Shown: piece after piece, positions 1,479-30,666 of the stretch
Layout of the letters: each line of letters starts with the position of its first letter
Numbering within the stretch: the first letter of the stretch is position 1
Origin: Proteiniphilum propionicum
Lineage (GTDB): Bacteria; Bacteroidota; Bacteroidia; Bacteroidales; Dysgonomonadaceae
Assembly: GCF_022267555.1 (NCBI RefSeq)
Contig: NZ_CP073586.1
Span: forward strand, 434,001 to 498,000
DNA: 64,000 nucleotides
Reading direction: 5' to 3'
The notes under the pieces: model-generated
Database searches by the model: none
What the model was told of the DNA's origin: nothing
Seen by the model: only the letters and a program-made list of their open reading frames with translations
Program-made: the position numbers and the translations under genes

Positions 1479-1491
1479 AATGACTTCCTCT

Positions 1492-1515: not shown

Positions 1516-1706
1516 GCGGGGGCAAAAATGAAAAACAGATATTAAATCAATCAATACAAGGAAAATACACAGGTAGAAAGTCGAATGCAACTTTTATTTA
1601 AACTTTTGAACATATATTTGTATTTTTGCATGACATTTATATAGTCAAATGTAAGCAGCACAATTGTTGACTTTTTTCAGCAAGTGTATTAAAGGGTTTT
1701 GTACGT

Positions 1707-2303: not shown

Positions 2304-2458
2304 TGAACTATTCTTCTGGATTTTGTATGCAAAGGATGTGGATTTGTTAATTTATCATTATTTTTACTAAATACAGGCGACATTCCCAAGTTTTATCTGT
2401 CTTGTTAATACGTTATAAAATCTTTAAATAGATTTTATCAACAAAATTTTCCCCAATT

Positions 2459-3670: not shown

Positions 3671-3800
3671 ATTACAACTAACAAAATGTTTTCAGTATAA
3701 ATGGCTAAAATAATTATCATCTCATTGTTTATCATCTACATAACCATACTTTTCAATCATTATATTATCACACACAATGTAACCAATAAAAGTATTTCGC

Positions 3801-6980: not shown

Positions 6981-7044
6981 TCATCAGATACTTGGGTGCA
7001 AACACAGCGCCAGAAAAATTTCAAAAACATTAAAATCAAATAAA

Positions 7045-8274: not shown

Positions 8275-8315
8275 GCTGGCGTTATTTAACCCGTTATATT
8301 TTAAATATTTATTTC

Positions 8316-9899: not shown

Positions 9900-9955
9900 A
9901 AGAAACAGCGAAAAGAATAACGATACAACAATATATTAATACAATAAAATAAATT

Positions 9956-11914: not shown

Positions 11915-11955
11915 CAATACTAAATAAACAGAAATTTTACAAAAGAAAATCTGAT

Positions 11956-14055
11956 ATGAGAAAATATATCATCATCTTGATAATTTTAATAGGTATAAGT
12001 GCAAACACAGTAAAGGCAGACGAAGGCATGTGGCTGATACAAGCTCTGAATAATGAACTGCAAAAGCGCATGGAAACCGGGGGATTGGAAATTGGGTCAG
12101 AAGTTATATACAGTGAAAATGAAGCTTCTCTGAAAGATGCCGTTGTTTCATTAGATTTTGGTTGCACCGGCAGTATGATCTCCAATAAAGGACTCTTAAT
12201 AACAAATCATCATTGTGCTTATGATGATATTTTCAATCTAAGTACCCCTGAAAACAACCTGCTGGAGAATGGATACTGGGCAAAAAACAGCTCCGAGGAG
12301 ATACCTGTAAAAGGGAAAACCATCTATTTCCTAAGAAAAGTGGTAGATTGCACAAACGAATTGAACCATGTCAGAGATTCTTTACAGAAAATAAAACAGC
12401 CAAGCGGTTCGCGACGTGTATTTAGTATTATCGAAAATAAACACAAGCAGCAAAGCGGATACGAAGCCTCGTGCTCTTCCATGTGGAATGGCAACAAGTA
12501 TTATATGTATTATTATGATACCTATACCGACATAAGGTTTGTTGGCGCCCCCCCTGTTCAGGTCGCAGCGTTTGGAGGCGATGTTGATAATTGGGAATGG
12601 CCTCAACATAAATGTGATTTCGCACTGTATCGTATATATGGAGATAAAAATGGAAGACCTGCAGCTTACTCAGATGAAAACATTCCAATTAAACCCAAAA
12701 AAATTCTGAAGATTTCACTGGATGGTGTTCAGGAGAACGACTTTGCTATGATAATTGGCTTTCCGGGGAGAACCGACAGATACAGTTCCTCTTTCAAAGT
12801 AGATATGAATGAAAGAATAATTGGGCCTATAATGGTGGAATCTATGGGGACAAAAATGGAAATTATCAGAAAATGGATGAACAGAGATTCCGAAATACGC
12901 AAGAAATATTCAAATATATTTTTTGGTTTAAGCAACGTACAGGAATCCCTGGCAGGTGAGGTTGCTTGCACACGAAGATTTGATGTTGTAGAGAAAAAAA
13001 TGCAGGAAGAAAACAAATACTGGAAAAATGACGCCTCACTCCTGTCGATGATGGAAAGAGGATACAAAGATGTGGAAGAAATCGAAAAATATATGACATA
13101 CTACCGCCAATCGCTCGTTTCAGGGAAGGGATTTATTGCACTGGGGAACAGGGTAAACTCTTTAAAACCTGACGACAATCAATCGTATGACTCATTCGTA
13201 AAAAGGGTTGAAAAATTATTTACTGAATATGATGCCCGAGTAGAAAAAGAGCTTATGGAGTATCAACTGAGACTATTTATCGAAAACGTACCTAAAAAAT
13301 ATTGGGGGCCATTTATAAAGTATCTGACAGGAAAGTTCGAAGACAATTACGCAGCAATGACAAGTGAGATATTCGATAATTCTGTTATGCTGGATCCCAA
13401 TAGATTTAAAGAGGCAGCGAAAGAAAAAAACAACATTAAGCTCTTCATGGAAGATCCAGCAGTTAAGTTGGCTAGAGATATAAAAATATCTGATTTACGC
13501 AAAGATGAAACACAGATATTAAAGGATAAAGTGTCATTGTACAAAATGGACGGTCTTTATGAAAAAGCATTGTACAACAAGAAAAAAAGTGCAGGTATAT
13601 TACAATATCCGGATGCCAATTTTACCATGAGACTTACTTATGGAAATGTGTGCAAAATGCAACCATCTGATGCAATCAATTACAACTATATATCAACCAC
13701 GCAAGGCATTATTGACAAGTATAATCCTTATGATTATGACTTTGCATATCCTGAAAATATTCTCAATATAATTGAAAGAGGAGAATGGGGAAAATATGGA
13801 AAGGATGGAAAATTGCATGTAAACTTCCTTACAAACAATGACATTACGGGCGGCAATTCGGGAAGCCCTGTCATGAACGGGAAAGGCGAGCTGATAGGAT
13901 TGGCATTCGACGGAAACAAAGAGTCCTTGGCTTCAAAGTATTACTATCAGGATGAGATGACAAACTGTGTTTCGGTTGATATCCGGTATGTACTTTGGTA
14001 TATCGACAATTGTACTGATGTTGGATATCTTTTGGATGAAATAGCAGCCAAATAG
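11956..14055 (+). CDS. dpp7: S46-family dipeptidyl peptidase, DPP7-type specificity pocket
   Basis: A 699-residue periplasmic serine exopeptidase that removes dipeptides from peptide N-termini. A signal peptide ends near VKA, followed by the conserved DEGMWL of mature S46 enzymes. The triad is visible: His86 in TNHHC, an Asp in GGDVDNWEWPQH (209/211), and Ser635 in GGNSGSPV. The residue 18 positions after the Ser is Gly653 (AFDGN). In Porphyromonas gingivalis the equivalent site is Gly in DPP7 (hydrophobic P1) and Arg in DPP11 (acidic P1), so this copy should prefer hydrophobic residues. I chose the ATG at 11956 because the longer frame from 11830 overlaps the preceding gene and hides the signal peptide. 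Confidence 0.9.
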   Translation: MRKYIIILIILIGISANTVKADEGMWLIQALNNELQKRMETGGLEIGSEVIYSENEASLKDAVVSLDFGCTGSMISNKGLLITNHHCAYDDIFNLSTPENNLLENGYWAKNSSEEIPVKGKTIYFLRKVVDCTNELNHVRDSLQKIKQPSGSRRVFSIIENKHKQQSGYEASCSSMWNGNKYYMYYYDTYTDIRFVGAPPVQVAAFGGDVDNWEWPQHKCDFALYRIYGDKNGRPAAYSDENIPIKPKKILKISLDGVQENDFAMIIGFPGRTDRYSSSFKVDMNERIIGPIMVESMGTKMEIIRKWMNRDSEIRKKYSNIFFGLSNVQESLAGEVACTRRFDVVEKKMQEENKYWKNDASLLSMMERGYKDVEEIEKYMTYYRQSLVSGKGFIALGNRVNSLKPDDNQSYDSFVKRVEKLFTEYDARVEKELMEYQLRLFIENVPKKYWGPFIKYLTGKFEDNYAAMTSEIFDNSVMLDPNRFKEAAKEKNNIKLFMEDPAVKLARDIKISDLRKDETQILKDKVSLYKMDGLYEKALYNKKKSAGILQYPDANFTMRLTYGNVCKMQPSDAINYNYISTTQGIIDKYNPYDYDFAYPENILNIIERGEWGKYGKDGKLHVNFLTNNDITGGNSGSPVMNGKGELIGLAFDGNKESLASKYYYQDEMTNCVSVDIRYVLWYIDNCTDVGYLLDEIAAK

Positions 14056-17736: not shown

Positions 17737-17776
17737 ACTTCCCGATTGAAGAAATTTCAATCGGGAAGTCTTTATT
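17737..17776 (+). terminator. Rho-independent-type terminator after M16 protease gene
   Basis: A perfect 14-bp stem (ACTTCCCGATTGAA at 17737-17750, its complement at 17756-17769) with a 5-nt loop is followed by a short T-rich run (CTTTATT). It begins 48 bp after the stop codon of the protease gene. Confidence 0.8.
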
Positions 17777-18303: not shown

Positions 18304-18311
18304 TAACTTTG
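18304..18311 (+). promoter_or_regulatory. Bacteroidota -7 element before the kinase operon
   Basis: TAACTTTG matches the TAnnTTTG consensus and lies 65 bp upstream of the first start codon. No clear TTTG (-33) box is found at the usual distance, so the call rests on one element. Confidence 0.45.
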
Positions 18312-18375
18312 CAAATAGATTTTTGAATTTGCTGGTTGAATCTACCTTTTACTATTATATTATTTAGATTTTATC

Positions 18376-18624
18376 ATGCCACAAAATTTAATCGTACTTA
18401 CCGAAAGGGTTCTTCTTGAGGAGCAAATAAAAACAAAAGTTCTTGCCAACGCCGACTTAAGCCGACTTGATGTTTCAGGACTTGACTTCTCAGATTGTAT
18501 GTTGAGCAACATAATATTTTCTTCCGAAAACAATACTCATAAAGAAATAACCGATGTGTCATTTTGCAATCCAATGTTACATAATGTTTTCTTTATTCCG
18601 GGCAACAAAATCAGAAATCAGTAG
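18376..18624 (+). CDS. Small pentapeptide-repeat protein
   Basis: An 82-residue protein. Residues ~23-72 read as imperfect pentapeptide repeats with the A/L-x-x-x pattern (LANADLSRLDVSGLDFSD, then VSFCNPMLHNVFF), which would form a short right-handed beta-helix. It has no signal peptide, so it should be cytoplasmic. It is the first gene of the kinase operon, 35 bp ahead of the zinc-ribbon gene. Such small repeat units often serve as binding surfaces; its partner here may be one of the operon's proteins, which is inference. Confidence 0.7.
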   Translation: MPQNLIVLTERVLLEEQIKTKVLANADLSRLDVSGLDFSDCMLSNIIFSSENNTHKEITDVSFCNPMLHNVFFIPGNKIRNQ

Positions 18625-18659
18625 CGTTTTACGAACCCAAACATATACTTGAAATAAGT

Positions 18660-19637
18660 ATGAACCATAAGCAACAAGCGCAACTAAGGCAAGCACAACC
18701 AATGCAAGCGCAAAAAGCGGAAACCAAAACCCGGGATAACCACACCATGCAAGAGAACCGCTGCAAAAAATGCGGCGCTTCTTATTCAAGTGATGACAAG
18801 TTTTGCTCCGAATGTGGTTGCTCTCTAAACTTAACCACCTGCCATAAGTGCGGAGCCGGTATAAAGGCCGGCATAGAGCTGTGTCCACAATGTGGAGAAA
18901 ATCTGCTGTTGGAAATCTGTCCTTTCTGCGGAAGTTCTGTCAGTAGCACCGATCTGTTTTGTTCCGAGTGTGGAAATCCCAAATCGGGTATCACCTGTTC
19001 AAACTGCCAAACGCTGAATTTCAGAAGTTTCTGTCGAAAATGCAATGCTCCTCTAAACGCACGGGCACGGCAAGCTCTCCTTATTGCTAAGAAAGATCCG
19101 ATAGTAAAAAAGACAGTCGTGTTGATCGAAGAGCTTGCTCAATTAGAAGAGTATATTTTAAGTCAAACGCAAGAGGCCAAAAAAGAACAACTATCGGAAG
19201 AGGATTTGAATTTGGTAAACGAGCATAAAGAGTTGCTTGCGTCCATCCGAGGAATGAAGTTGGAAAAAGAAAAACCACAACCTAAACTCAAACCTCAACC
19301 AAAGCCTGAAAACAATAGCAAGATATCTTTCTCTATACATGCCTTAAGCAAAGAGGAAGCGATGGAAAAGTACAAAGAGAAACTAAAAGAGATGCAGGAA
19401 ACGTTATCAGCAATGATACCCGATGCGGGTATGACGCCGCAAATGCAACGCGACTTTCATTCGGCACGAAAAGTAGAGATAGAAGTACTTACCAGGCAGA
19501 AAGTACCCATAGGGTGGCGGTGTAAAGCCTACGGCTGTCTTCACTCGCAACCCAATGAGTGCGTAAAACCTTTTTCAGGTGGAGAGTGGATTTATGAAGA
19601 ACGTGAAATATTGACAAGGACGTGGGGACATAAATAA
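18660..19637 (+). CDS. Four-zinc-ribbon scaffold-like protein
   Basis: A 325-residue protein of unknown function. Four zinc-ribbon knuckle pairs sit in the first ~130 residues: CKKCG/CSECG, CHKCG/CPQCG, CPFCG/CSECG and CSNC/CRKC. A Glu/Lys-rich probable coiled coil follows (EELAQLEEYILSQTQEAKK), then a Pro/Lys-rich linker and a C-terminal domain with more cysteines (WRCKAYGCLHSQPNEC). The N-terminal 29 residues are a Gln/Ala-rich tract; ATG 18747 (MQENRCKKCG) is a plausible alternative start. It precedes the kinase gene by 42 bp. Zinc ribbons recur in several proteins of this operon, so it may hold the complex together. Confidence 0.85.
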   Translation: MNHKQQAQLRQAQPMQAQKAETKTRDNHTMQENRCKKCGASYSSDDKFCSECGCSLNLTTCHKCGAGIKAGIELCPQCGENLLLEICPFCGSSVSSTDLFCSECGNPKSGITCSNCQTLNFRSFCRKCNAPLNARARQALLIAKKDPIVKKTVVLIEELAQLEEYILSQTQEAKKEQLSEEDLNLVNEHKELLASIRGMKLEKEKPQPKLKPQPKPENNSKISFSIHALSKEEAMEKYKEKLKEMQETLSAMIPDAGMTPQMQRDFHSARKVEIEVLTRQKVPIGWRCKAYGCLHSQPNECVKPFSGGEWIYEEREILTRTWGHK

Positions 19638-19679
19638 AAATAAGCAAAACCTGTTTACTATCAATAAAACCATTCGGCA

Positions 19680-22600
19680 ATGGATAAAACACTTAGGCCC
19701 GACAGTAAAACCATAAGAGCTACCGAAAGAAAATCCAACGTTTCGCCAACAGAGAGAACCTTGCGACCGAACGAAGACAGAACCATTCGCAAGGCACAAA
19801 GGCAAACGGGAGGAGAAAAAACAGCACGTACAAATGAAGCCAAAACACTTAGAAAAACCAAACAGCAGTCCGAAACAGCTCACACTATACAAACAACAGC
19901 CACGGAGTTTACAATAAAAAATAAACCATACACGGTTGTGAACGTAATTTCGGAAGGGACAGGCGAAGCACAGATATATCTTGTAGAACATGAAAAAGAT
20001 CAATCTGTGCTGAAACTATATTATCCCAACCTGATGCCGCCTCCCAATTTTACAATCATTGAATCAGTTAAAAGTTATGCCGAAACAGGATCCTTTGTTC
20101 AAGTGTTCGACTGTGGCGAGTGGATTGACCCGGCAACAGGCATGAAACGAATTTACGAACTGATGGAATATTGTACCGGAGGTTCGTTGGAACAGCTCAA
20201 TGTAAATAAAGACGAAAAACTGATAGGCGAAATAGCCTTGCAATGTGGCGCATCTATACAGTTCCTAAATAGCAAAGGGGTCATACACAGAGACATAAAA
20301 CCAGCCAACTTCTTTTTTGCCGATGACACCAAAGGGGTTGAAACACTTCGCCTTGCCGATTTTGGTATTGCTATAAATACGGACAAGGAGGGCATAGCCG
20401 AAATAAAGGCTGATTCGCAACTGCGTACACCTGTATATACAGCTCCTGAGTATTATTATACCATTGACGGCAAAATCCAATTCGATTACAAATCCGATTT
20501 TTATTCCCTTGGAATGATGTTGCTGGTGCTTTGGGACGGCGAAAAAATATTTACTCTTAAAGAGTACGAACTTAGGAATCTGAAGATACACGGCAACTTG
20601 CCATACCCGACAGATATTTCGGATAGGACCTTACAACTGTTTAAAGCTCTTACGGACCCAGATCCGAGATCACGAGCCGACTACCACGACATCATTCGTT
20701 GGGTGAAAGGAGAGAATATTTACGAGTTGAAGGAGAAAACAAGTGAAGGGTTTAATATCTTGTTCGACCCGGCCAACAACCTTACTGCCACTTCTGCCGA
20801 AGAGTTGGGGCAGTTTATGTACGACAATCAGGGACTGGCTGCCAAATATTTGTATTCGGGTAAAATAGCCGAATGGCTTACCGGTAACAAAAGACCCGAT
20901 TTGGCGGTAGAGATGGAAGACATCGTTGAAAACCAATTCCCCAAAGACAAGGAAGCGGGTACTCTGACTGCGTGTTTCTTTTTGAATATGATTATCCCAT
21001 ACTACGATGTTAACAACCGCCCACACTCCACTCCCATATCTATTGCCCAATCGCTAAACGAGAACGCTGAATACTATGCGGCCGCGTTAGCCAATAATAA
21101 CGACCGGCTTTTTTTATTCCTTAGCTCTCACGGCTCAAGGAATTTAACGGAAAGATTCGCTCCGCTTTTCAAGAAAAAGAACGACAACATAGAACCGTTG
21201 CGTCAGCTTATTTATACCTTAAATCCACAGGCACCGTGGATACTTACCAACGAAGAAAACGAGGTGTTTGAATGCCACACCATTGACGATGTTATAAATG
21301 CCAATTACAAAGAAACACTTTCCGATGAATCGTGGAAAAACCTTCTCGAAGAGTCGTTTTTACTGTGGGTTCGCAACCAGAACCCGGCGGTAGAGGGTAG
21401 AATTCGCTCGCAAGAGGGACACGATGAAAATGCGTGGTGCGTATTGTACTACCTGAGCCCGAAAGTATCATATAACCTGAGTCTTGAAGAAGATTCCGAC
21501 ACCTATTTCTTTACGTCTGCCGAAATAGGAGAATACATGAATAATATGATAGATGATTTTATTCATGATGCCGAAAATAGTGAATACGCGAGTGAGCAAC
21601 TGGATATGATGTGCGACATTGACGACACACGCCTTTACTATTACTTGAAATCAAAAGTGGTTTATGACGACAAGATAGAGTGGATAAGATATTGCGCAGA
21701 TGTAAATTCAGTGGAGAATGCTGCAAAGTACGCTCCATACAATTGGAAAACCGGTGTTTATAAAAGCATCAAAGGACTTGGCTACGATCCGTATTATTAT
21801 TTTCCCGAAAGTGATGAGTATATTTACAACCTCGAAGAATTAAACGATATTCCGAATAAGGAAGTAGAAGAAGAACTGGAAAATGGATTCCTAAAAGAAT
21901 GGATAGCCTTGTTTTTTCAAGAAAATCCCGATGAAGACTTGTCGGAGAAATATACTTTTGAAAGCCTGACTGTCGATTACATAGACTTCATTTCACAATA
22001 TAGTGTAAACGACGTTGAAATTAATGATTATCACGAAGCTGTAGGCACAGTACAAAATACACATTCAAAATTGAAACGAAATTACAGGACCAACCTGATT
22101 GTTAAAATTGTAATGGGGATATTGTCCCTTATGGCCGTTGGATTTGTCTCGTATAAGTTGTTAATCTCAGAATTAGCATTCAATACCAATTCTAAATGGC
22201 TGTACATTATCCCATTAATAATCGGTTATGCCGTTGGGAGATATAGATATGGCGAATGTCTTGACAGTTTCGTTAAAAGCTTCCTAATAGGCTTGGGCTC
22301 TTTTATCGGAATATCCTTGATAGTTTCCTTTTCAATATCCTATCCTGCCTATCTATTATCCGGACTGTTGATAGCCGGCTTGATATGGGTAGCTATCATA
22401 TGCTATATAAGAACAAGGTTGCATATTAGAAGGAAGAAACACCTTTTTAAACCCGGTTTCGAAGAACTAAGCCTTGAGCCACTGCACTACGGATTTGTAG
22501 CCGATGAAGGAGAAATGTTTGAATCCTCTATCGGTGGGGTAAGCCTCCAATTGGTGGCAGACTTGAGACAAAACACTAAGAAAGTGTTGAAAAATACCGC

Positions 22601-22997
22601 CATGTTAATATTATTGTCAATCTTCCTTTTCCTGGGACATGCTTATCTGTCGATGTATGTTTCCAACAAACAAACCAATAAGGCAAGATACGAAGCGTTG
22701 GCAGGCGAATATAAAGGTATTTTTGATAATAGGGACGCTGTTTTCACCATTACAGACATGGAAGAAGAAAAAGCAAAAGCCGAAATAGAAGTACGGTATA
22801 AAAGTTTAATCACCGAGAAGCTGAAAGGCGAAATCAATATCGACACGCGCAGCTTTCATTTCGACGATATAAACAGAAACAATAACCAACTTGATGGCGA
22901 ATATAACGGCTCATTCAACGATGACTTTAGCCAATTGTCGGGAACGTACAAAAACTACACAACAAGAAAAGAGGTTGAATTTAAGTTTAACAAATAG
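19680..22997 (+). CDS. Membrane-anchored Ser/Thr protein kinase with repeated TxR tail
   Basis: A 1105-residue Hanks-type kinase. The kinase domain spans about 78-345: glycine loop SEGTGEAQIYLV, ATP-binding Lys112 (SVLKLYY), catalytic Asp205 (VIHRDIKPANFF), Asp227 (LADFGIA) and the TAPEYYY motif. All residues needed for activity are present. Residues 1-60 are unusual: the motif [KR]T[LIA]R occurs six times, at T4, T11, T27, T35, T48 and T56. The ~450-residue middle is unrecognised. Five probable membrane helices lie between ~803 and 995, followed by a beta-rich C-terminal domain. It is co-directional with FHA, PP2C and AAA+ genes, so it is likely the writer of a local phospho-signalling pathway. 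Confidence 0.92.
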   Translation: MDKTLRPDSKTIRATERKSNVSPTERTLRPNEDRTIRKAQRQTGGEKTARTNEAKTLRKTKQQSETAHTIQTTATEFTIKNKPYTVVNVISEGTGEAQIYLVEHEKDQSVLKLYYPNLMPPPNFTIIESVKSYAETGSFVQVFDCGEWIDPATGMKRIYELMEYCTGGSLEQLNVNKDEKLIGEIALQCGASIQFLNSKGVIHRDIKPANFFFADDTKGVETLRLADFGIAINTDKEGIAEIKADSQLRTPVYTAPEYYYTIDGKIQFDYKSDFYSLGMMLLVLWDGEKIFTLKEYELRNLKIHGNLPYPTDISDRTLQLFKALTDPDPRSRADYHDIIRWVKGENIYELKEKTSEGFNILFDPANNLTATSAEELGQFMYDNQGLAAKYLYSGKIAEWLTGNKRPDLAVEMEDIVENQFPKDKEAGTLTACFFLNMIIPYYDVNNRPHSTPISIAQSLNENAEYYAAALANNNDRLFLFLSSHGSRNLTERFAPLFKKKNDNIEPLRQLIYTLNPQAPWILTNEENEVFECHTIDDVINANYKETLSDESWKNLLEESFLLWVRNQNPAVEGRIRSQEGHDENAWCVLYYLSPKVSYNLSLEEDSDTYFFTSAEIGEYMNNMIDDFIHDAENSEYASEQLDMMCDIDDTRLYYYLKSKVVYDDKIEWIRYCADVNSVENAAKYAPYNWKTGVYKSIKGLGYDPYYYFPESDEYIYNLEELNDIPNKEVEEELENGFLKEWIALFFQENPDEDLSEKYTFESLTVDYIDFISQYSVNDVEINDYHEAVGTVQNTHSKLKRNYRTNLIVKIVMGILSLMAVGFVSYKLLISELAFNTNSKWLYIIPLIIGYAVGRYRYGECLDSFVKSFLIGLGSFIGISLIVSFSISYPAYLLSGLLIAGLIWVAIICYIRTRLHIRRKKHLFKPGFEELSLEPLHYGFVADEGEMFESSIGGVSLQLVADLRQNTKKVLKNTAMLILLSIFLFLGHAYLSMYVSNKQTNKARYEALAGEYKGIFDNRDAVFTITDMEEEKAKAEIEVRYKSLITEKLKGEINIDTRSFHFDDINRNNNQLDGEYNGSFNDDFSQLSGTYKNYTTRKEVEFKFNK

Positions 22998-23002
22998 AGA
23001 TC

Positions 23003-26000
23003 ATGGAGTGTCCTTCGTGCAATAAACCCAACAGAAGCAAAGCGCTGTACTGCAAATGGTGCGGAGAAAATGTAATAACTGAAATCAACGATCCGTTAAG
23101 CGACCTAATCGGCTTGGAAGCCATTAAGAAGCAACTTGAAGAACTGGTTAAAACATGTGAAAACATTTCGTTGCGGACAAAAAAGACAGGGGTGAGAATT
23201 CGCCTGGGAATGGATATGGTGATTACGGGAAATACCGGAACAGGGAAAACTGAACTTATCAAAGTATTGCAAAACCTGCTTTTCTCAACCGGTATTATCA
23301 AGAAAAATAATGCCGTGATTGTCGATGCGGTCGATTTTGATGAGTTTTCACGAAAGACCGAAAAAACAGACAACTGGTCCGAAAATACAAACAAAGCCAA
23401 AGGAGGGCTGCTGGTCATCGAAAACGCTCAAAAACTCGTACCGCAAACCTCCGCCAACGAAATCAACAAACTCGATAAACTCTTCAAATGTATGAACGAC
23501 GAATGGGACAATGATCCCATCGTAATACTTTCGGGATTATCGGGACTGAAAGCCTTTATGATGGCTAATGCCGATATTGCAAACCGCTTTGAATACCATT
23601 TCGACTTGACCGGTTATGATTCAAAAGAGCTGACCGGTATTTGCCTGAAGAAACTCCATGACAACTACGATGGATTGACCCTCAGCGAAGATGCAACAGC
23701 TAAACTGGAGCGTGTATTCAAACATGAGTTCCGCAACAAAAAAAGTGATTTCGGCAACGGACACTTGGCCACAAAAAAAGCTTCCGAAATTTTCGCTAAT
23801 GTCATAAAACGCAACCATAACGCACAAAACGCTGAATGCGAAGATATAACAGGCAACGAATTTCGCCCCAGAAGCTACGATGAGATTATGCAAGAGTTGG
23901 ACAGCTTTGTGGGTATTGAGGAGATCAAACAATCCATCAAAAAAATTATCAGCCGGTTAGATACAGGTGAAATGATGCACGGCGAAAAGGCAAAACGGGA
24001 GATAAAAGACCACTTCCTGTTTTTAGGCAATCCCGGGACAGGCAAAACAACCATTGCCCGTATTTTTGCAGATATACTCAATTCGCTCGATGTATTACCC
24101 ACAGGACAGTTAGTTGAGGTCTCCAGAAAAGAATTGGTAGCTGGCTATGTCGGACATACGGCTATTGCGGTGGAAGAAGCGGTAAACAGAGCAATGGGGG
24201 GTGTCTTGTTTATTGATGAAGCCTACTCGATTATTAAAGACGAGAACGACTCCTTCGGTATTGAGGCAGTAAACACACTGCTGAAACTCATTGAAGACAA
24301 CAGAGGTAAGCTGGTTGCCATAGCTGCAGGATATACAAAGGAAATGGCAGACTTTCTCGCGGCTAACTCAGGCATGAAGTCACGTTTCAACGAAACCATA
24401 AATTTCAGAGACTATACCGCCAAAGAACTGACTGAGATTTTCCGTCGGTTGGTGAAAAAAGAAAAGATGACCCTGAGTGACGACGCTGAAAAAAACATTG
24501 AAAACTTCTTCAACCGTATGTATATCTCCCGCGATAAAAAATCGTTCGGCAATGCCAGGGAAGTACGCAATGCGTTCGACAAAGCGTTGAAAAATCACGC
24601 GCTCCGTGTGCAACAACTCAAAGGCGATGCCAATATCACGCAAGAAATGCTCTACACACTTACCCGGGCAGATATTGAAGGAGAGGAAAATCTGAAAGAA
24701 AAAGATTTGGACACTATCCTCACAGAGCTTGACCAATTTATCGGAATGGACTCGGTAAAAACCGAAATACGCAAGCTGGCCACCAAGCTGATGATGGATA
24801 AAAAAATGCAGGAAAAAGGTTTTGCCGATGCCGAACTCACCAATGTACATATCGTCCTTACCGGCAGTCCTGGCACAGGAAAAACGACCATTGCCAATAA
24901 GCTGGGCGAGATATTTAAAGCCATAGGCCTACTTCCTTCCGACAGGGTGGTTGTCAAAGAACCGAAAGACATCCTCAGCTCTATTGTCAACGACAGCTCA
25001 AAGCGTATGGACAAAGCCTGCGATGAAGCCATGGGTGCCACCTTGCTGATAGACGAAGCGTATAATCTTGCCAAAGTGGATGGTGTGGGAAACGTGGATG
25101 AAACGGGCAGACAGGCCGTGGAAGCCCTGATGACACGCATGAGCAACGATGCCGGTAAGTTTGTAGTGATTGTGGCAGGATATAAAAACGAAGTTGATAG
25201 GTTTATCCAAAAAGCAAATCCGGGATTAGACCGTAGATTTACCACCCGGCTGCATATCGAAGACTATACCGCCAATCAATTGGTGGATATCTACAAGCTG
25301 AACGCCAGAAAAAACAAACTTAATCTCACCCAAGAGGCTGAAGTGCGACTACATAAGCTTGTTAATAGAATGGTAGACGCCAAAAAACCTAACTTTGGCA
25401 ATGCGGGCGAGGTAATTAAGGTGCTTGCCGAAACAAAAGCCCGTAAAGCGAACCGTTTGGCTGAAATGATGGGACAAGGCATCGACATAACCAAAGAGAT
25501 ATACCAGACGATAGAAGCAGACGATATCCCATACAATGAACCAAAAGCATTGGTTAAAAACGATTATCTCAAAAATCTAGACCAATTGATAGGATTGGAA
25601 AATGTCAAAAATGAAGTGCGTCGTGTAGCCGGCTACATCGAAGTAGAGCGGGCCAAAGCAGCGAGGCTCGGCAAAAAGTTCCAGGGACTTGACGATCATT
25701 ACCTTTTTGTAGGAAACCCCGGTACAGGCAAAACAACGGTAGCCAGAATTATGGCCGATATTTTATATTCATTGGATGTATTGCCTACAAACAAACTCAC
25801 GGAAACAGCCCGCGATGGCCTGGTAGATATGTTCCAGGGACATACCGCCAAAAGGACCAAAGAGGTCTTTCAGAGCGCCATGGGCGGTGTGCTTTTTATC
25901 GATGAAGCATATTCGCTAAAACAATCGGATGGTGATTCTTTCGGACAGGAGGCCATTGATACTCTTCTGAAATTAATGGAAGACAACAGAGGTAAAATTA

Positions 26001-26368
26001 TCTGCATTGCTGCCGGATATCCGTATGAGATAAATCAGTGGCTCAATAGCAACAGCGGATTGAAGCATCGATTTACCAAGACCATCGATTTCGATGACTA
26101 TAATGACAAAGAATTGGCTCAAATATTCTTGATGAAAGCACAAAAAGACCAGTTGATACTTACCCCGGAAGCCGAAAAGCTAATGAGGAACTATTTCTGC
26201 GACTTATACGAAAATCGCGATGAGAACTTTGCAAATGCCCGGCAAGTCAATAAATACTTTGCAAAAGTAAAAACAAACCAAAGTACACGTATTCAAGAAA
26301 TCATGAACCAGCCCGATTTTGAAGTAGACAGCTTTAAATTGTTAATGGCAGAAGATATGCTTTTATAA
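23003..26368 (+). CDS. Four-module AAA+ ATPase (CbxX/CfxQ-like) with N-terminal zinc ribbon
   Basis: A 1121-residue protein. A zinc ribbon (C3, C6, C17, C20) is followed by four AAA+ modules with Walker A motifs starting near residues 76 (GNTGTGKT), 342 (GNPGTGKT), 621 (GSPGTGKT) and 904 (GNPGTGKT). Walker B motifs are intact in modules 2-4 (LFIDEAYS, LLIDEAYN, LFIDEAYS) but module 1 has LLVIENAQ, lacking the catalytic Glu, so it is probably inactive. Modules 2 and 4 are most alike. This is the CbxX/CfxQ (CbbX, EccA) clade, whose members remodel protein complexes. It starts 5 bp after the kinase gene, so the two are surely co-expressed, and is the likely ATP-driven effector. Confidence 0.92.
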   Translation: MECPSCNKPNRSKALYCKWCGENVITEINDPLSDLIGLEAIKKQLEELVKTCENISLRTKKTGVRIRLGMDMVITGNTGTGKTELIKVLQNLLFSTGIIKKNNAVIVDAVDFDEFSRKTEKTDNWSENTNKAKGGLLVIENAQKLVPQTSANEINKLDKLFKCMNDEWDNDPIVILSGLSGLKAFMMANADIANRFEYHFDLTGYDSKELTGICLKKLHDNYDGLTLSEDATAKLERVFKHEFRNKKSDFGNGHLATKKASEIFANVIKRNHNAQNAECEDITGNEFRPRSYDEIMQELDSFVGIEEIKQSIKKIISRLDTGEMMHGEKAKREIKDHFLFLGNPGTGKTTIARIFADILNSLDVLPTGQLVEVSRKELVAGYVGHTAIAVEEAVNRAMGGVLFIDEAYSIIKDENDSFGIEAVNTLLKLIEDNRGKLVAIAAGYTKEMADFLAANSGMKSRFNETINFRDYTAKELTEIFRRLVKKEKMTLSDDAEKNIENFFNRMYISRDKKSFGNAREVRNAFDKALKNHALRVQQLKGDANITQEMLYTLTRADIEGEENLKEKDLDTILTELDQFIGMDSVKTEIRKLATKLMMDKKMQEKGFADAELTNVHIVLTGSPGTGKTTIANKLGEIFKAIGLLPSDRVVVKEPKDILSSIVNDSSKRMDKACDEAMGATLLIDEAYNLAKVDGVGNVDETGRQAVEALMTRMSNDAGKFVVIVAGYKNEVDRFIQKANPGLDRRFTTRLHIEDYTANQLVDIYKLNARKNKLNLTQEAEVRLHKLVNRMVDAKKPNFGNAGEVIKVLAETKARKANRLAEMMGQGIDITKEIYQTIEADDIPYNEPKALVKNDYLKNLDQLIGLENVKNEVRRVAGYIEVERAKAARLGKKFQGLDDHYLFVGNPGTGKTTVARIMADILYSLDVLPTNKLTETARDGLVDMFQGHTAKRTKEVFQSAMGGVLFIDEAYSLKQSDGDSFGQEAIDTLLKLMEDNRGKIICIAAGYPYEINQWLNSNSGLKHRFTKTIDFDDYNDKELAQIFLMKAQKDQLILTPEAEKLMRNYFCDLYENRDENFANARQVNKYFAKVKTNQSTRIQEIMNQPDFEVDSFKLLMAEDMLL

Positions 26369-26404
26369 AAAAGCAAAAACACGGGGATAGTCATAAAAAA
26401 CGAT

Positions 26405-27007
26405 ATGTACAATTGTAAAACTGATGATATGCCTGAATTAGTAAAATGCCCTCTTTGCGGCAAAGAAATTGAAGCCGATAGTTTCTACTGCGACCAGTGC
26501 GGAGAAGAGTTGAAGCTTTGCGGAAACGGACACGGTTTCAAGAAAGGTAAAGTTTGCAGCCAATGCGGACAACCATTGGTTAAAGCAAAATTTGCCCCTA
26601 ATAATAAAAGTCAGACTGAGCCCGATAATAGCGTTGTCACACACAATACTGCAGTTGAACCTACGCAAACGGATAATAGCTCTCAAAAAACGATACGCCT
26701 TACTCCAACAAAGGCTAAACCTCAATTTATGGTCGGCAAAAGCATCAATGCCCGGTTGCCCATAAAAGAGGGAGCTGTTATTGGCAGGCGCACGGGCGAT
26801 TATGTCTCAACATTTGCCTCGCAAGGTTATGTGTCGGGAACACATGCCAGAATCCAGGCCAATGCCGACGGGGATTATGAAATTATTGACTTGGATTCCA
26901 CTAACGGCACATTCGTAAATGGCTCACAAATAGCGCCCAATAAGCCTACTGCCATCCATACAGGTGATGAAATAGCCTTCTATGACACCACTTTTATTAT
27001 CGAATAA
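26405..27007 (+). CDS. Zinc-ribbon plus FHA-domain phospho-reader
   Basis: A 200-residue protein. The N-terminus has one standard ribbon (C15, C18, C29, C32) and a second set (C39, H43, C51, C54). A Ser/Thr-rich linker contains QKTIRLT at T96, the same KTIR motif that repeats in the kinase tail. The FHA domain fills about 115-200, with the phosphothreonine-binding hallmarks GAVIGRR, SGTHARI and DLDSTNGTFVNG. FHA domains bind phosphothreonine peptides, so this is the probable reader for the operon's kinase. The arrangement of a phosphorylatable Thr ahead of an FHA domain recalls GarA/OdhI, where the phosphorylated tail folds back on the FHA domain. Confidence 0.92.
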   Translation: MYNCKTDDMPELVKCPLCGKEIEADSFYCDQCGEELKLCGNGHGFKKGKVCSQCGQPLVKAKFAPNNKSQTEPDNSVVTHNTAVEPTQTDNSSQKTIRLTPTKAKPQFMVGKSINARLPIKEGAVIGRRTGDYVSTFASQGYVSGTHARIQANADGDYEIIDLDSTNGTFVNGSQIAPNKPTAIHTGDEIAFYDTTFIIE

Positions 27008-27029
27008 TAATCCTTAAAATTTATATGGT

Positions 27030-28619
27030 ATGTTCAGATTTTTTAAAAACAACACATTTTTCGATCGCACATTTATTTCCATTTTGCTCGGTATACTTCT
27101 CATTGTAATTGTAATTATTACCATATACCCAAACCGGAAGGTGGCAAATGTAAAAATGGCAGCATTAAAAAACACAGCACTAACTTACAACGAAGATGTA
27201 CTGGAAATAATAAACAAAGGCGATAGCGTGATTATTCTGGGGCAAGACATTAAAAACGGGACAATGGGAATGATGTTTTGGGTGGAGACTAAAAGCGGGC
27301 AAAGAGGCTTTGTGCCACAAGAAGCATTTGACGAATCGGGAGTAGTTTATAAAGTGAAGGAAGTACAAAAAAACGACGAACTAAATATTCAAAAAGGCGA
27401 TACCGTTACCATAATGGGACGAACGGATGAAATTGCCTTTGTGGATTTTAACATTAAAACAAAAGACGGAAAGACCGGGACAGTAGGCCATGATGGAATA
27501 ATAAGCGTCACAGGTAAAAAACTGGCAAAATATAATCTCAACGATAGAAGGGCTTTTTATATGACAAAGCAAAAGTTTGAACGGTTATATATGGGCAGGA
27601 CTTTCGATGAAGTCGAAAATCTGTATTGTAATGCATTCATTATAATGAACAAAGGCAAAAACAAAGAGGCTGTTTATCCACTGAGGGTTTTCAATAAATC
27701 GGACGGGAAGTTCTATAAACCAACCCTTGTTTTTGAAGATAGCATCGCGAAGTCGTATTCCATGGAAACGGTTCATTATCATAAAAAATCATGGTTTCCC
27801 AAAAATTATCTTTTCTTGAAATACCTGCCGCTCTCAGGCACTATTTTAGACATCGATTTATTTGCGAACATGATAAACGGGCTTATGTTCGAGAGTGAAA
27901 TTGTTGATGATTTTACCGATACACCTATCCGAAAAACCTTGGGTATAATTATGGCGATTTTTGTAGGATTAGGAGCACTCTTGTGGATATTTTCCACTAA
28001 CCTTGCTATTCCGCTTTTGCTTTTCGGGTTGTTGAAATTCCGCTATCCTTTACTATTTGTGAGCAATAAGGCTTTCCCAATTACATTTTTGGTGGTTAGC
28101 ATTATTACCACATACATATGGATAGTTTTGGGACTGAGCTATCAGTTCTTTTGGTGGTTCTTTATCCCAGTTGTTTTGTATCTGTTTTTCTTTTCATATA
28201 GACAAATCAACGATTTTTTTGATGAATTTCCCTATAACCGCTGTCCCGACTGCAAGCATCTGTACACCATCAATTATAATGCTAAAAATCTTATCAAAAA
28301 ATACGAAGAATGGCGGCCCAAAACAGAAAGAGGCAAGCTTTTAGATTCGCATACTGAAAGATGGCAAACAGGCGACAAGGTTACAACATACGATCAATAT
28401 AGCGATGGCTCAAGAAGAAACTACCAAACAAAAATAGAAAATATTCAAAATCACTCTCGTACAATTAATGTGTATCAATACAATGAGTATAATGTTTTAT
28501 ATAAGGTGTATGAATATGAGCATGTTTACAAATGCACAAAATGTGGTTATGAGCAATATTCGCACTCTGAAGAGTTGGAGGAACTCGACCGTAAATTTGT
28601 AAAATCATACGCAAAATAA
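27030..28619 (+). CDS. Membrane protein with SH3-like repeats and a split zinc ribbon
   Basis: A 529-residue protein not assigned to a family. A first membrane helix (ILLGILLIVIVIITIY, ~20-36) is followed by two bacterial-SH3-like segments (~48-105 and ~110-165; KNTALTYNEDVLEIINKGD and NIQKGDTVTIMG). Then comes an unrecognised ~130-residue region, four closely spaced membrane helices (~295-395), and a C-terminal cytoplasmic domain. In that domain two Cys pairs, CPDC (~404) and CTKC (~501), are separated by nearly 100 residues and could form one interrupted zinc ribbon. It lies 22 bp after the FHA gene. It could sense the envelope and relay inward to the soluble zinc-ribbon proteins; that is inference. 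Confidence 0.8.
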   Translation: MFRFFKNNTFFDRTFISILLGILLIVIVIITIYPNRKVANVKMAALKNTALTYNEDVLEIINKGDSVIILGQDIKNGTMGMMFWVETKSGQRGFVPQEAFDESGVVYKVKEVQKNDELNIQKGDTVTIMGRTDEIAFVDFNIKTKDGKTGTVGHDGIISVTGKKLAKYNLNDRRAFYMTKQKFERLYMGRTFDEVENLYCNAFIIMNKGKNKEAVYPLRVFNKSDGKFYKPTLVFEDSIAKSYSMETVHYHKKSWFPKNYLFLKYLPLSGTILDIDLFANMINGLMFESEIVDDFTDTPIRKTLGIIMAIFVGLGALLWIFSTNLAIPLLLFGLLKFRYPLLFVSNKAFPITFLVVSIITTYIWIVLGLSYQFFWWFFIPVVLYLFFFSYRQINDFFDEFPYNRCPDCKHLYTINYNAKNLIKKYEEWRPKTERGKLLDSHTERWQTGDKVTTYDQYSDGSRRNYQTKIENIQNHSRTINVYQYNEYNVLYKVYEYEHVYKCTKCGYEQYSHSEELEELDRKFVKSYAK

Positions 28620-28633
28620 AAATATTTAAAAGC

Positions 28634-29398
28634 ATGCTTGTCAAAACAGACCTGATTTGCGATATTGGCTGCGTAAGGCAGAAGAACGAAGACATAATAC
28701 TGCTGGATGGAGAGTTGTATCGTGATAAATCGGCACAGAGCAAGTACGAGCTCACCCCGGAAGTCCGCTTTGTAGCCATAGTTGCCGACGGCATGGGCGG
28801 ACACAAGGGAGGTGATGTTGCCTCCGAGATTGTCGCTCAGCAATTCAACGAGTTTGTTTACAACCTGCCCGGCAAATTGAGTCAAGAGGAAGTAATTTCG
28901 CGAATAAAAGATTGGACACAAGCAACACATCAGCTTCTTGTCCACTTAAGCAGTGTGAATAGGGAGTTGGAAGAGATGGGTTCTACTTTTTGCGGTATGC
29001 TGTTTTACGAAAAGATGATTTTCATTCTCAATATCGGCGACAGCAGGATTTATCGATTTCGCGACGGTATATTCAAGCAACTAAGCACCGATCACTCTTT
29101 GCGTCAGCTCACGGGCGATATGTCCATACCCAACAACATTATCTACAACTCGTTTGGCGGCAACGATGATGTTTATATTGATGTGAAAAACATCTCCGGA
29201 CAAGTTTTTGAAAACGATATTTTCCTGATATGCTCCGATGGACTGGCAGATATGGTTTCTGACACTGAAATAGAAAAGACTTTGATAGAGACTGTTTCGG
29301 CACAGAAATTAGTGGATAAAGCCAAACAAGCGGGCGGAAAAGACAATATAAGCGTAATAATAATGCAAATCTGCCAATCAACTAACTCCGGCCTATGA
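28634..29398 (+). CDS. PP2C-family Ser/Thr protein phosphatase
   Basis: A 254-residue cytoplasmic phosphatase that would reverse the kinase's phosphorylation. All metal-binding motifs of the PP2C/SpoIIE fold are present: RQKNEDI near the start, ADGMGGHKGG, GDSRIYRF, SDGLADMV and the terminal GGKDNISVI. No membrane segment or extra domain is seen. It begins 14 bp after the membrane-protein gene, and its stop codon overlaps the next gene's start (ATGA at 29395). Kinase plus PP2C plus FHA is the standard set for reversible threonine signalling in bacteria. Confidence 0.95.
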   Translation: MLVKTDLICDIGCVRQKNEDIILLDGELYRDKSAQSKYELTPEVRFVAIVADGMGGHKGGDVASEIVAQQFNEFVYNLPGKLSQEEVISRIKDWTQATHQLLVHLSSVNRELEEMGSTFCGMLFYEKMIFILNIGDSRIYRFRDGIFKQLSTDHSLRQLTGDMSIPNNIIYNSFGGNDDVYIDVKNISGQVFENDIFLICSDGLADMVSDTEIEKTLIETVSAQKLVDKAKQAGGKDNISVIIMQICQSTNSGL

Positions 29399-29991
29399 TT
29401 GAGATTTCTTACGAACTTAAAAACGCCCTAATTCCTTTGCTTAACTCAAAGCAGAGTTTTGAACTGTTCGATGCGAATAAAACGTGCTTGCACACCACGG
29501 TCTTGTCTTTCTTTAGGTATTATGATTTGATTTCGGCTCGCACCTTCTCAACCATTCCGCCGGTAACGATGGAATACCTCTGGAACCGAAACAACAACCA
29601 TATTATTAAGTTAGACGGCACATGCGACTGTATTTTTGACAACCTCGAAAAATTGGGGTTGAACCTGAACGACAACAACTTTTCCGATTACCTGACATTT
29701 GTTCTTGAAAACGTTCAAAGCGAGCAGGGAAAATTGCGATTGGTGCAAAGCATTGACGATGTAGAATATTCGCAAAACCCCACGAAAGAAGAAATCAAGT
29801 TTCTCGAGAGAAATATCAAACCGATAGAAGTCGAACTTAAAGATGAAACATGCAGGGTTCAATGTCATATCCTGTACGGAGATACGCTCTATCGTGCAGA
29901 AATAAATGTTTCTGACGACGGCACTTTTGAATTTGTATCCGAAGAGTGTCTAAGGGCCGGATTGCCCGTAAGGCAAATATTTTTAGAGTAG
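29395..29991 (+). CDS. Unrecognised 198-residue protein of the kinase operon
   Basis: I do not recognise this protein. It has no signal peptide or membrane segment and is acidic. The first half has helical character (YELKNALIPLLNSKQSFEL), the second half beta character (VELKDETCRVQCHILYGDTL). Its start overlaps the phosphatase stop by 4 bp, which implies translational coupling and therefore matched amounts with the phosphatase. It is followed 20 bp later by a SUKH-like gene. A role as adaptor or regulator of the phosphatase is possible but unproven. Confidence 0.75.
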   Translation: MIEISYELKNALIPLLNSKQSFELFDANKTCLHTTVLSFFRYYDLISARTFSTIPPVTMEYLWNRNNNHIIKLDGTCDCIFDNLEKLGLNLNDNNFSDYLTFVLENVQSEQGKLRLVQSIDDVEYSQNPTKEEIKFLERNIKPIEVELKDETCRVQCHILYGDTLYRAEINVSDDGTFEFVSEECLRAGLPVRQIFLE

Positions 29992-30011
29992 ACGCACTAG
30001 ACCATATAACC

Positions 30012-30431
30012 ATGATTATCAAAGATATAATACGTAATCTCGATGAATATGTCCTTGCAAATCCTCCGGCTACCGGCAAGGATATCGACAGATGCAACAA
30101 CCAGATGACAAAAATCAACGCTCCGCGGTTGCCTGTCGACTTTGTAGCGTTTCTTCAGATATGTAACGGCATGCAGTATAACGGCATGCAGATATTTGGC
30201 AGCAAACAAAACGAAATTATTCATTTTACCGCACAAAACCGTATCTATTACGAGCGTTTTGACGAGATAAATGATTTGATTTTCTTCGGGCAAATTGATG
30301 ACGACTTGTACACCTATAACGCACAAACACAAAAATATCAGGCACGCGACATTTGCAGTTTTGATATTTGGGACGAATATAACTCCTTCAGTGAGTTTTT
30401 CTCGAAAGAAATGATGAAATGGCTTGCTTAA
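30012..30431 (+). CDS. SUKH (SMI1/KNR4)-like protein
   Basis: A 139-residue cytoplasmic protein. RLPVDFVAFLQICNGMQYNG is the typical SUKH core (LP-x-D followed by L-x-x-x-NG), and the later FDIWDEYNSFSEFF fits the C-terminal helix of the YrhA/SMI1 type. SUKH proteins include many immunity proteins against polymorphic toxins, and also eukaryotic signalling adaptors. I chose ATG 30012 because the longer frame from 29946 overlaps the previous gene by 46 bp and adds a basic segment unlike the family. No toxin gene was found next to it, so an adaptor role within the operon is as likely as immunity. Confidence 0.78.
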   Translation: MIIKDIIRNLDEYVLANPPATGKDIDRCNNQMTKINAPRLPVDFVAFLQICNGMQYNGMQIFGSKQNEIIHFTAQNRIYYERFDEINDLIFFGQIDDDLYTYNAQTQKYQARDICSFDIWDEYNSFSEFFSKEMMKWLA

Positions 30432-30450
30432 AAACAATAAAAGAAACGTG

Positions 30451-30666
30451 ATGAACAAATCGCTTGAAGCACTTAAACAACTAGCCGGACAGGACGATAC
30501 CGAAGCCCAATACCAACTGGCCTTGCTCTTGCTTACCGATGCCGAAACCTACTGGGAAGGCATGGAATGGCTCAAACGAGCTGCCGATAATGGGCATGAA
30601 CTTGCCCGGCAAGCCTACGACGATGAATTCATAGATGACGATGGCAGGTTTGACGCTTGGGCTTAA
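30451..30666 (+). CDS. Sel1-repeat-like small protein
   Basis: A 71-residue protein made almost entirely of one to two Sel1-type repeats (DTEAQYQLALLLLTDAETYW, then GMEWLKRAADNGHELARQAY). Sel1 repeats are alpha-helical hairpins that mediate protein contacts. An acidic tail (EFIDDDGRFDAWA) ends it. It lies 19 bp after the SUKH-like gene and is the last gene of the operon. ATG 30451 was preferred to 30424 because the latter overlaps the upstream gene and adds only basic residues. Confidence 0.75.
   Translation: MNKSLEALKQLAGQDDTEAQYQLALLLLTDAETYWEGMEWLKRAADNGHELARQAYDDEFIDDDGRFDAWA

What the first reader, a model, noticed from the sequence alone, without database searches (positions are those of the whole stretch)
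18376..30666. Ten-gene kinase/phosphatase/FHA/AAA+ operon as a candidate undescribed signalling system
Seen: ten + strand genes with gaps of 5-42 bp and one 4-bp overlap encode a Hanks-type membrane kinase, a PP2C phosphatase, an FHA reader, a four-module CbxX-like ATPase, three other zinc-ribbon or membrane proteins, and pentapeptide, SUKH-like and Sel1-like proteins. Known: kinase, PP2C and FHA proteins together control type VI secretion and mycobacterial metabolism, and CbxX-clade ATPases (CbbX, EccA) remodel protein complexes. Inference: phosphorylation controls the assembly or activity of the AAA+ machine. No secretion, phage or metabolic enzyme gene lies in the operon, so the output is unknown.
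Basis: partly seen in the sequence, partly recalled or inferred. Interest (0 to 1): 0.85.

Follow-up and report, generated by a model that had tools for sequence, protein, structure and literature searches.

The report
Five-gene phospho-signalling chaperone cassette
Gut and anaerobic bacteria of the Bacteroidota carry an intact, apparently undescribed block of five genes that seems to use a protein kinase, its reader and its eraser to control a large ATP-driven chaperone whose target is unknown.

Summary
That order, on one strand, holds in 75 of 80 named loci. In 7 of 10 metA-bearing Prevotella-type genomes without the FHA gene, the block's two flanking genes are direct neighbours, so it comes or goes as a block. 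The other five window genes are accessory.

New evidence: the kinase's disordered N-tail carries repeats of [D/E]-x-T-[IVLM]-R-P, with 227 T[ILVM]R in 76 tails against 8.3 expected. The same motif lies beside the FHA domain in 14 of 20 readable proteins outside Prevotella-type loci, before it in Bacteroidales, after it in Ignavibacteriota-type loci, and in 0 of 40 readable Prevotella-type ones. FHA phosphothreonine residues and kinase and PP2C active-site motifs are kept. Best reading: autophosphorylated tail, FHA docking, control of the AAA+ chain, PP2C reset. Target unknown. T6SS, T7SS and Rubisco marker families are absent from the 10-12 genomes tested.

The parts
17737..17769 (+). terminator-like hairpin after the upstream peptidase gene, sets the cluster apart from it
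   Evidence: 15-pair stem, T-rich tail; consensus match only
18304..18312 (+). TAACTTTGC, candidate Bacteroidota -7 promoter element 63 bp before g1 (motif recalled)
   Evidence: 20 matches in the window against 14.2 by chance, so weak; the two-element version does not match here
18376..18624 (+). g1, pentapeptide-like 82-aa protein; accessory, found in none of the 80 relatives
18660..19637 (+). CORE g2: 325 aa, zinc ribbons (8 CxxC in 68 of 75 proteins, window included) and a C-terminal WxC-H-C-GGxW domain (73 of 75)
19680..22997 (+). CORE g3: Hanks-type kinase, helical repeats, probable TM segments; 1105 aa
19680..19862 (+). disordered N-tail of g3 with TLR/TIR repeats (T4, T11, T27, T35, T56)
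   Evidence: pLDDT under 50 for residues 1-61
19905..20714 (+). kinase domain of g3; K112, H203, D205, K207, N210, DFG, APE glutamate in 49 of 49 aligned
20757..22019 (+). helical region of g3; two stretches (360-515 and 520-700) match each other
   Evidence: hhalign probability 98.8, E 5e-17; a third stretch (703-780) does not match; no family above cut-off names it
22014..22694 (+). long, probably membrane-spanning helices of g3 (residues 779-1005)
   Evidence: secondary structure; hydrophobicity read by eye
23003..26368 (+). CORE g4: zinc ribbon plus four CbxX/SpoVK/EccA-type AAA+ modules, 1121 aa
23090..23872 (+). module 1 of g4 (limits approximate): P-loop kept, Walker B glutamate replaced by Asn (VIENAQ)
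26405..27007 (+). CORE g5: double zinc ribbon, linker, FHA domain, 200 aa
26684..26701 (+). QKTIRL motif (T96) in the linker just before the FHA domain of g5
27030..28619 (+). g6, membrane protein (by eye) with SH3-like matches below cut-off and C-terminal Cys pairs; accessory
28634..29398 (+). CORE g7: PP2C phosphatase; DGMGGH-type motif in 75 of 77
29395..29991 (+). g8, unknown 198-aa protein; accessory, in L040, L044, L051, L124
30012..30431 (+). g9, SUKH/YrhA-family protein; recurring accessory
30451..30666 (+). g10, small Sel1-like protein; accessory, related gene in L051

Best explanation
g2-g3-g4-g5-g7 is one signalling-chaperone cassette. Shown by sequence: a membrane-linked kinase with a disordered Thr-repeat tail, a zinc-ribbon-FHA reader, a PP2C phosphatase, a multi-ribbon protein and a single-chain multi-module AAA+ ATPase of the CbxX/SpoVK/EccA clade are inherited as a block. 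Inferred: on a signal the kinase autophosphorylates the [D/E]xT-psi-R-P repeats of its own tail, which become several docking sites for the FHA domain of g5. In many lineages outside the Prevotella type g5 carries the same motif beside its FHA domain, so it can bind itself or a neighbour, giving a competing state (GarA/OdhI/DgcB-like). Zinc ribbons on g2, g4 and g5 join the parts, so docking brings the AAA+ chain to the membrane or switches it. The AAA+ chain then remodels or activates a dedicated target, as CbbX does Rubisco and SpoVK does MurG. PP2C resets it. The target is not identified; a cell-envelope assembly step is my guess, weakly held.
For: Block inheritance: order in 75 of 80 named loci, different flanks in different lineages, empty site in 7 of 10, similar groupings in kinase and AAA+ trees of 31-32 rows, not formally tested. 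Tail: 227 T[ILVM]R in 5679 aa of 76 tails against 8.3 expected and 19 in 73683 aa of the rest; at least one in 71 of 76, at least two in 64 of 76; predicted disordered in the window protein. FHA side: motif in 14 of 20 readable proteins outside the Prevotella type (15 copies against 2.0 expected), 8-11 residues before my FHA anchor in Bacteroidales (one second copy at 29), 13-17 past my assumed end of it in Ignavibacteriota-type proteins. FHA residues G127, R128, S144, H147, N167 in 29 of 29. Best solved relatives of g5: ArnA over ribbon, linker and FHA by sequence (E 6e-12; by fold it ranks 26th) and, top by fold, the DgcB FHA domain with its own phosphorylated tail. DgcB's ligand has Glu at -2 and Thr 14 at the centre after K13; here D or E is at -2 in 161 of 227 and K, the commonest letter, at -1 in 64. 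CbbX and EccA1 are the nearest solved AAA+. AAA+ modules 2 onward read DEAY and AGY in 236 of 236; module 1 keeps a P-loop in 77 of 77 but has Asn for the Walker B glutamate in 76. Characterised clade members act as dedicated chaperones (PMC10659427, passages).
Against: No phosphorylation or binding was observed. The FHA-side motif is absent in 40 of 40 readable Prevotella-type proteins (21 of 81 proteins had no anchor and were not scored), so the self-binding switch is not general. Five of 76 kinase tails lack T[ILVM]R, though L050 and L117 carry other Thr repeats. The motif differs from DgcB/GarA ligands, which have Ser at +1 and hydrophobic residues at +2 and +3; here +1 is hydrophobic, +2 Arg and +3 often Pro. 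Nothing shows that FHA docking alters the ATPase; zinc ribbons as the link is a guess. The AAA+ chain passes the SpoVK, EccA and CbbX models alike, so the target cannot be read from family. L049 has unrelated genes after g5 where PP2C would be, and L126 shows no g2.
Confidence: 0.55

Rival explanations
1. It is a conflict or anti-phage system in which the phospho-relay licenses the AAA+ chain to act on an invader, with SUKH, ankyrin and pentapeptide proteins as immunity-like parts.
For: Patchy spread: 5 strong FHA hits in 393 genomes of the order, 3 of 101 in the window's family. Accessory SUKH proteins recur; ankyrin proteins were found beside two cassettes and DUF1963 beside one. Kinase and AAA+ give hits to MAD6, PD-T4-6 and IetA models.
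Against: No effector or toxin domain recognised in the core. No relative of the FHA protein found in viral contigs or phages. In Prevotella-type loci it sits at one chromosomal site between M13 peptidase and metA-U32 (56-58 loci share each flank family). PADLOC hits fall on the kinase or ATPase domains.
Confidence: 0.2
2. The kinase, FHA and PP2C control some other process; the AAA+ and zinc-ribbon genes are only co-transcribed, or the AAA+ acts upstream and serves the kinase.
For: No direct evidence of contact between g4 and the phospho-proteins; direction of control cannot be read from sequence.
Against: AAA+ lies between kinase and FHA in 75 of 80 loci in the full order and its block is absent as a whole at the empty site; it bears an N-terminal CxxC-CxxCG ribbon in 76 of 77, as g5 bears ribbons.
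Confidence: 0.18
3. It is the threonine phosphorylation pathway of a type VI secretion system (kinase PpkA, phosphatase PppA, Fha, AAA+ ClpV).
For: Same four kinds of protein (PMC5995506, search listing and start of abstract; further detail recalled).
Against: Sheath families PF05943 and PF17541: 0 of 10 genomes with the FHA gene each (no control rang). PF17541 finds 4 of 149 genomes of the order, one of them in the window's family and without an FHA hit. AAA+ is nearest CbbX and EccA1 among solved chains.
Confidence: 0.02
4. The AAA+ serves the known partners of its clade: T7SS substrates (EccA) or Rubisco (CbbX).
For: Nearest solved structures are CbbX and EccA1.
Against: WXG100 (PF06013) and Rubisco large chain (PF00016): 0 of 12 genomes each; control genomes rang (2 and 5 of 14).
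Confidence: 0.02

Closest known systems
ArnA-ArnB archaellum switch of Sulfolobus (ArnA zinc finger + FHA, kinase ArnC, PP2A)
   Same: g5 matches ArnA over ribbon, linker and FHA; a kinase and a phosphatase set a ribbon-bound and an FHA-bound state (PMC12852372, passages)
   Different: ArnB is a vWA protein; here no vWA was recognised, and the partners are a kinase tail and an AAA+ chain; the phosphatase is PP2C, not PP2A
GarA/OdhI and DgcB self-binding FHA proteins
   Same: Thr motif beside the FHA domain in many members; DgcB-FHA is the top fold match and its ligand also has an acidic residue at -2
   Different: motif on either side of the FHA domain; +1 to +3 differ; repeats also in the kinase tail; output is neither dehydrogenase nor cyclase
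SpoVK / CbbX / EccA clade of dedicated AAA+ chaperones
   Same: AGY sensor-1 and DEAY Walker B in modules 2 onward, AAA_lid_6
   Different: 3 to 5 complete modules plus a module without the catalytic Glu in one chain, N-terminal ribbon, linked kinase/FHA/PP2C
T6SS threonine phosphorylation pathway
   Same: kinase, PP2C, FHA and an AAA+ protein
   Different: no T6SS sheath gene found in the 10 genomes tested; different AAA+ family
KKP kinase-kinase-phosphatase prophage module (PMC11341870)
   Same: kinases, PP2C, FHA domain
   Different: two kinases, FHA fused to a kinase, no mention of AAA in the text (passages); here one kinase and an AAA+ chain
Kinase + PP2C + vWA genes of GAP1-N2 systems (PMC7159879)
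   Different: actinobacterial, vWA and GTPase partners; CbbX not mentioned in the text

Membership tests
CbxX/SpoVK/EccA AAA+ clade | AAA+ core with AAA_lid_6 and GY in sensor-1 | tested here: met
   AAA_lid_6, three stretches in the window protein; AGY in 236 of 236 modules after the first
CbxX/SpoVK/EccA AAA+ clade | Asn four residues before the first Arg finger, and sensor-2 Arg | not tested
   feature read in PMC10659427; not scored here
SpoVK proper | sporulating Firmicutes; short own N-terminal domain (PMC10659427); model of one module (261 positions) | tested here: not met
   four modules, zinc ribbon, in Bacteroidota. The TIGR02881 score (666.7 over 422.95 bits) is for the whole four-module chain
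EccA / T7SS | T7SS with WXG100 substrates in the genome | tested here: not met
   0 of 12
CbbX | Rubisco partner in the genome | tested here: not met
   0 of 12
T6SS threonine phosphorylation pathway | T6SS sheath TssC in the genome | tested here: not met
   0 of 10; in-order positives
GarA/OdhI-type FHA switch | FHA with conserved pThr-binding residues | tested here: met
   29 of 29
GarA/OdhI-type FHA switch | Thr motif beside the FHA domain | tested here: inconclusive
   14 of 20 outside the Prevotella type, 0 of 40 of that type, 21 of 81 not scored
GarA/OdhI-type FHA switch | motif phosphorylated by the kinase and bound by the FHA domain | not testable with these tools
   needs protein
ArnA | zinc ribbon plus FHA in one chain | tested here: met
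   profile 3-189 on chain 4-198
ArnA | vWA partner ArnB | tested here: not met
   no vWA family among those shown for the ten window proteins (lists cut to 25 of 79 for g4 and 25 of 31 for g5)
Active Hanks kinase | catalytic Lys, HxD, Asn, DFG | tested here: met
   49 of 49
PADLOC defence systems | specific match to a system's set of proteins | tested here: not met
   kinase and ATPase domain hits and a few weak ones among the rows shown; no set

The most novel reading that the evidence does not exclude
A new class of phosphorylation-gated, membrane-recruited AAA+ assembly chaperone: the kinase builds a multivalent phospho-tail that captures FHA-zinc-ribbon adaptors, which load a single-chain CbxX-type ATPase of four to six modules (the first able to bind but probably not to hydrolyse ATP) onto a dedicated target at the Bacteroidota envelope.
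Probability: 0.3. Interest if true: 0.82.

Novelty: new variant of a known kind. Interest (0 to 1): 0.62.

Why it matters
Ser/Thr phospho-signalling in Bacteroidota is little studied (my own knowledge). The FHA gene of this cassette is in 81 of 200 sampled genomes of one Prevotella-type genus, and the cassette reaches Ignavibacteriota. Kinase, reader, eraser, candidate docking motif and an AAA+ effector are all in one discrete five-gene block with natural empty sites, so a complete bacterial phospho-circuit could be deleted, moved and rebuilt. It would also give the understudied CbxX/SpoVK/EccA clade a member under phosphorylation control.

Tried and rejected
Ten-gene system: rejected; g1, g6, g8, g9 and g10 are missing from most relatives. 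T6SS, T7SS and Rubisco as output: tested and rejected for 10-12 genomes; of these genomes G691 was taken in on its FHA hit alone. The 3-module, about 1300-aa AAA+ proteins common in the phylum search were checked in two loci, L038 and L039, and have no other core gene beside them, so I set them aside. Plasmid hits to the AAA+ protein (270 records) are all under 60% identity, mostly Sinorhizobium, mycobacteria and Streptomyces; I took them as generic clade members without inspecting neighbourhoods. Empty-site test at the window's own locus: uninformative; its upstream neighbour was not found beside the downstream gene within the short loci fetched. Geometry of the FHA motif against the cleft could not be measured, as no coordinates were given. 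In one search four of nine FHA hits (E about 1e-13) were left out as generic FHA domains. In one search, 76 tails had a usable kinase anchor. In one search, 21 of 81 FHA proteins without anchor were not counted; the split into Prevotella-type and other loci was my own list.

Mended while checking: my first P-loop pattern missed GETGTGKT and made it look as if Prevotella-type proteins had lost the P-loop of module 1; notebook entry 4 still says so and is wrong. correct it. I had also counted L049 as cut off by a contig end; it starts inside g4 but has unrelated genes after g5.

Print search: searches gave no paper that I saw to describe this gene set; only open-licence full text was searched, I saw listings and passages, and figures are not held. 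PMC10659427 Fig. 3A shows operons of this AAA+ clade with a label ZnBd in its legend; its main text has no kinase or FHA, but the drawing itself could include this cassette.
Full report
OBSERVATION. All ten ORFs are present on the + strand at the stated place, with gaps of 35, 42, 5, 36, 22, 14, -4, 20 and 19 bp. A terminator-like hairpin at 17737-17769 separates them from the upstream peptidase gene. I call them g1 to g10 in order. The window lies in a one-contig 3.9-Mb genome. Its genus is probably Proteiniphilum: a genome placed in the same genus, G1031, has a contig of exactly the length (65807) of the Proteiniphilum sp. UBA1403 record that carries the cassette; this is an inference.

THE UNIT IS FIVE GENES. 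I searched 395 genomes of the phylum with g4 and compared eight fetched regions with the window genes. Five have the order zinc-ribbon protein (g2), kinase (g3), AAA+ (g4), FHA (g5), PP2C (g7); a sixth has g4-g5-g7 at a contig start; two regions with 3-module AAA+ proteins have none of the other genes. Of these 80 loci, 75 have all five in that order on one strand. Of the other five, L052, L054 and L090 begin at a contig end inside or just before g4; L049 also begins inside g4 but has unrelated genes after g5 where PP2C would be; L114 has g2 last. Four further regions were read: L124, L125 and L128 have the full order; L126 shows no g2. Flanks differ between lineages. Four of the 80 are the same contigs as four of the unnamed regions.

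GAINED OR LOST AS A BLOCK. In the Prevotella-type loci the block lies between an M13 peptidase gene and metA-U32 (families in 58, 56 and 58 loci). From the 119 genomes of that genus without an FHA hit I took 12 of the 20 listed and searched them for metA: 10 have it, and in 7 of those 10 the M13 peptidase gene lies directly upstream, about 60-300 bp away. In 3 of 10 it was not within the fetched stretch. The two states differ by the five-gene block. Prevalence of the FHA gene: 81 of 200 genomes of the genus of G394 (a few match over the FHA domain alone, and two of those, L125 and L126, proved to be cassettes), 3 of 101 in the window's family, 5 strong hits of 393 in the order sample (four weak ones left out). 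Kinase and AAA+ trees show similar groupings, which fits joint inheritance; no formal test was made.

ACCESSORY GENES. g8 is in L040, L044, L051 and L124; g6 in L044, L051 and L124, after g7 rather than before it. SUKH relatives occur downstream in L040, L044, L051 and L124, right after g7 in L098 (same contig as L034), and between g2 and g3 in L059 (same contig as L035). Ankyrin proteins (L044, L051), a DUF1963 protein (L047) and a second CbxX-type ATPase (L041, L043) occur beside some. An AraC-type regulator, membrane-spanning by eye, precedes g2 in L044, L124 and L128 (Pfam) and a related gene in L051.

CORE PROTEINS. Kinase: catalytic residues in 49 of 49 aligned. AlphaFold model: mean pLDDT 85, pTM 0.59; residues 1-61 under 50; kinase, helical region, long helices, C-terminal beta domain. 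Two helical stretches match each other (hhalign 98.8), a third does not. AAA+: of 77 proteins over 1000 aa, 76 begin with a CxxC-CxxCG ribbon. P-loops: 4 in 73 including the window, 5 in 3, 6 in 1. Every module after the first reads DEAY in Walker B and AGY in sensor-1 (236 of 236). Module 1 keeps a P-loop in 77 of 77, never reads AGY, and has Asn in place of the Walker B glutamate in 76 of 77: by known AAA+ rules it should bind ATP but hardly hydrolyse it. g2: 8 CxxC in 68 of 75. PP2C motif in 75 of 77. FHA: phosphothreonine-binding residues in 29 of 29.

THE MOTIF. The kinase N-tails hold 227 T[ILVM]R in 5679 aa over 76 proteins, against 8.3 from composition shuffles and 19 in 73683 aa of the remainder; 71 of 76 have one or more, 64 two or more. 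D or E stands at -2 in 161 of 227, P at +3 in 115 of 227. The same motif (T[ILVM][RK]) occurs next to the FHA domain of g5: in the linker, 8-11 residues before my anchor, in window, L040-L043, L045, L046, L050 and L051; and in the C-tail of L033, L054, L059, L072 and L098. That is 14 of 20 readable proteins outside the Prevotella type, 15 copies against 2.0 expected; 0 of 40 readable Prevotella-type proteins; 21 of 81 not readable by the anchor. One motif on opposite sides of the same domain in two lineages is what a ligand of that domain would look like. These counts treat related sequences as separate. Of 1019 other ORFs in the 80 loci (core genes other than the kinase included), 47 have at least one [DE]xT[ILVM]R and one has two, so no second tail-like protein is nearby.

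MECHANISM. The top fold match of g5 is the FHA domain of Bdellovibrio DgcB with its own phosphorylated tail. That ligand has Glu at -2, as here, but Ser at +1 and hydrophobic residues at +2 and +3, unlike here (PMC6733907, section 9 and passages). The best sequence match over ribbon and FHA together is archaeal ArnA, whose two domains hold its partner in an unphosphorylated and a phosphorylated state (PMC12852372, passages). The AAA+ clade contains dedicated chaperones for Rubisco, MurG and T7SS substrates, and its authors suggest envelope roles for several (PMC10659427, passages). From these I infer: autophosphorylation of the tail, docking of g5, recruitment or switching of g4 through ribbons, reset by PP2C. 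Shown: block, motif, intact active-site residues. Inferred: phosphorylation, binding, control of g4. Unknown: signal and target. The membrane placement of the kinase, the weak SH3-like matches of g6 and SUKH neighbours would fit an envelope target, but this is a guess.

KNOWN SYSTEMS. T6SS sheath families 0 of 10, with 4 positives of 149 in the order including a same-family genome that had no FHA hit; WXG100 and Rubisco 0 of 12 each. It works like the T6SS phosphorylation pathway or ArnA/GarA switches in parts, but I file it under none. No description of the set was seen in the papers searched, with the caveat about an unseen figure in PMC10659427.

VERDICT. Interest 0.62; new variant of a known kind.

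Noticed in passing
L114 (uncultured bacterium), 4342-12204: Rearranged cassette g3-g4-g5-g7-g2 with the longest kinase branch in the tree; may mark a lineage outside Bacteroidota.
   Followed up: no
L041:11538-13409, L042:11463-13337, L043:1-1539: Second AAA+ gene (single module; CbxX-type lid found in L041) with an unnamed N-terminal region beside the cassette in Odoribacter-type genomes.
   Followed up: partly
L044, L051, L124, L128 upstream of g2: AraC-type regulator of about 352-361 aa, membrane-spanning by eye, just upstream of the cassette, a likely transcriptional input.
   Followed up: partly
L050 and L117 kinase tails: T-psi-R repeats replaced by other Thr repeats (EPTRK-like, DRTNV-like), suggesting the repeat drifts as a unit.
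   Followed up: no
L054 (BQMY01000139.1) 156-5189: AAA+ chain of 1677 aa with six P-loops, the number of modules in single-chain ring ATPases such as dynein or midasin (recalled).
   Followed up: no
L049 (JAFUNW010000004.1) 3013-5729: FHA gene followed by unrelated genes on the other strand instead of PP2C: a possible cassette without its phosphatase.
   Followed up: no
G1029:C1:3584623-3587010: Relative of the window's 31256-32392 gene appears split in two about 1.3 kb apart in a same-genus genome.
   Followed up: no
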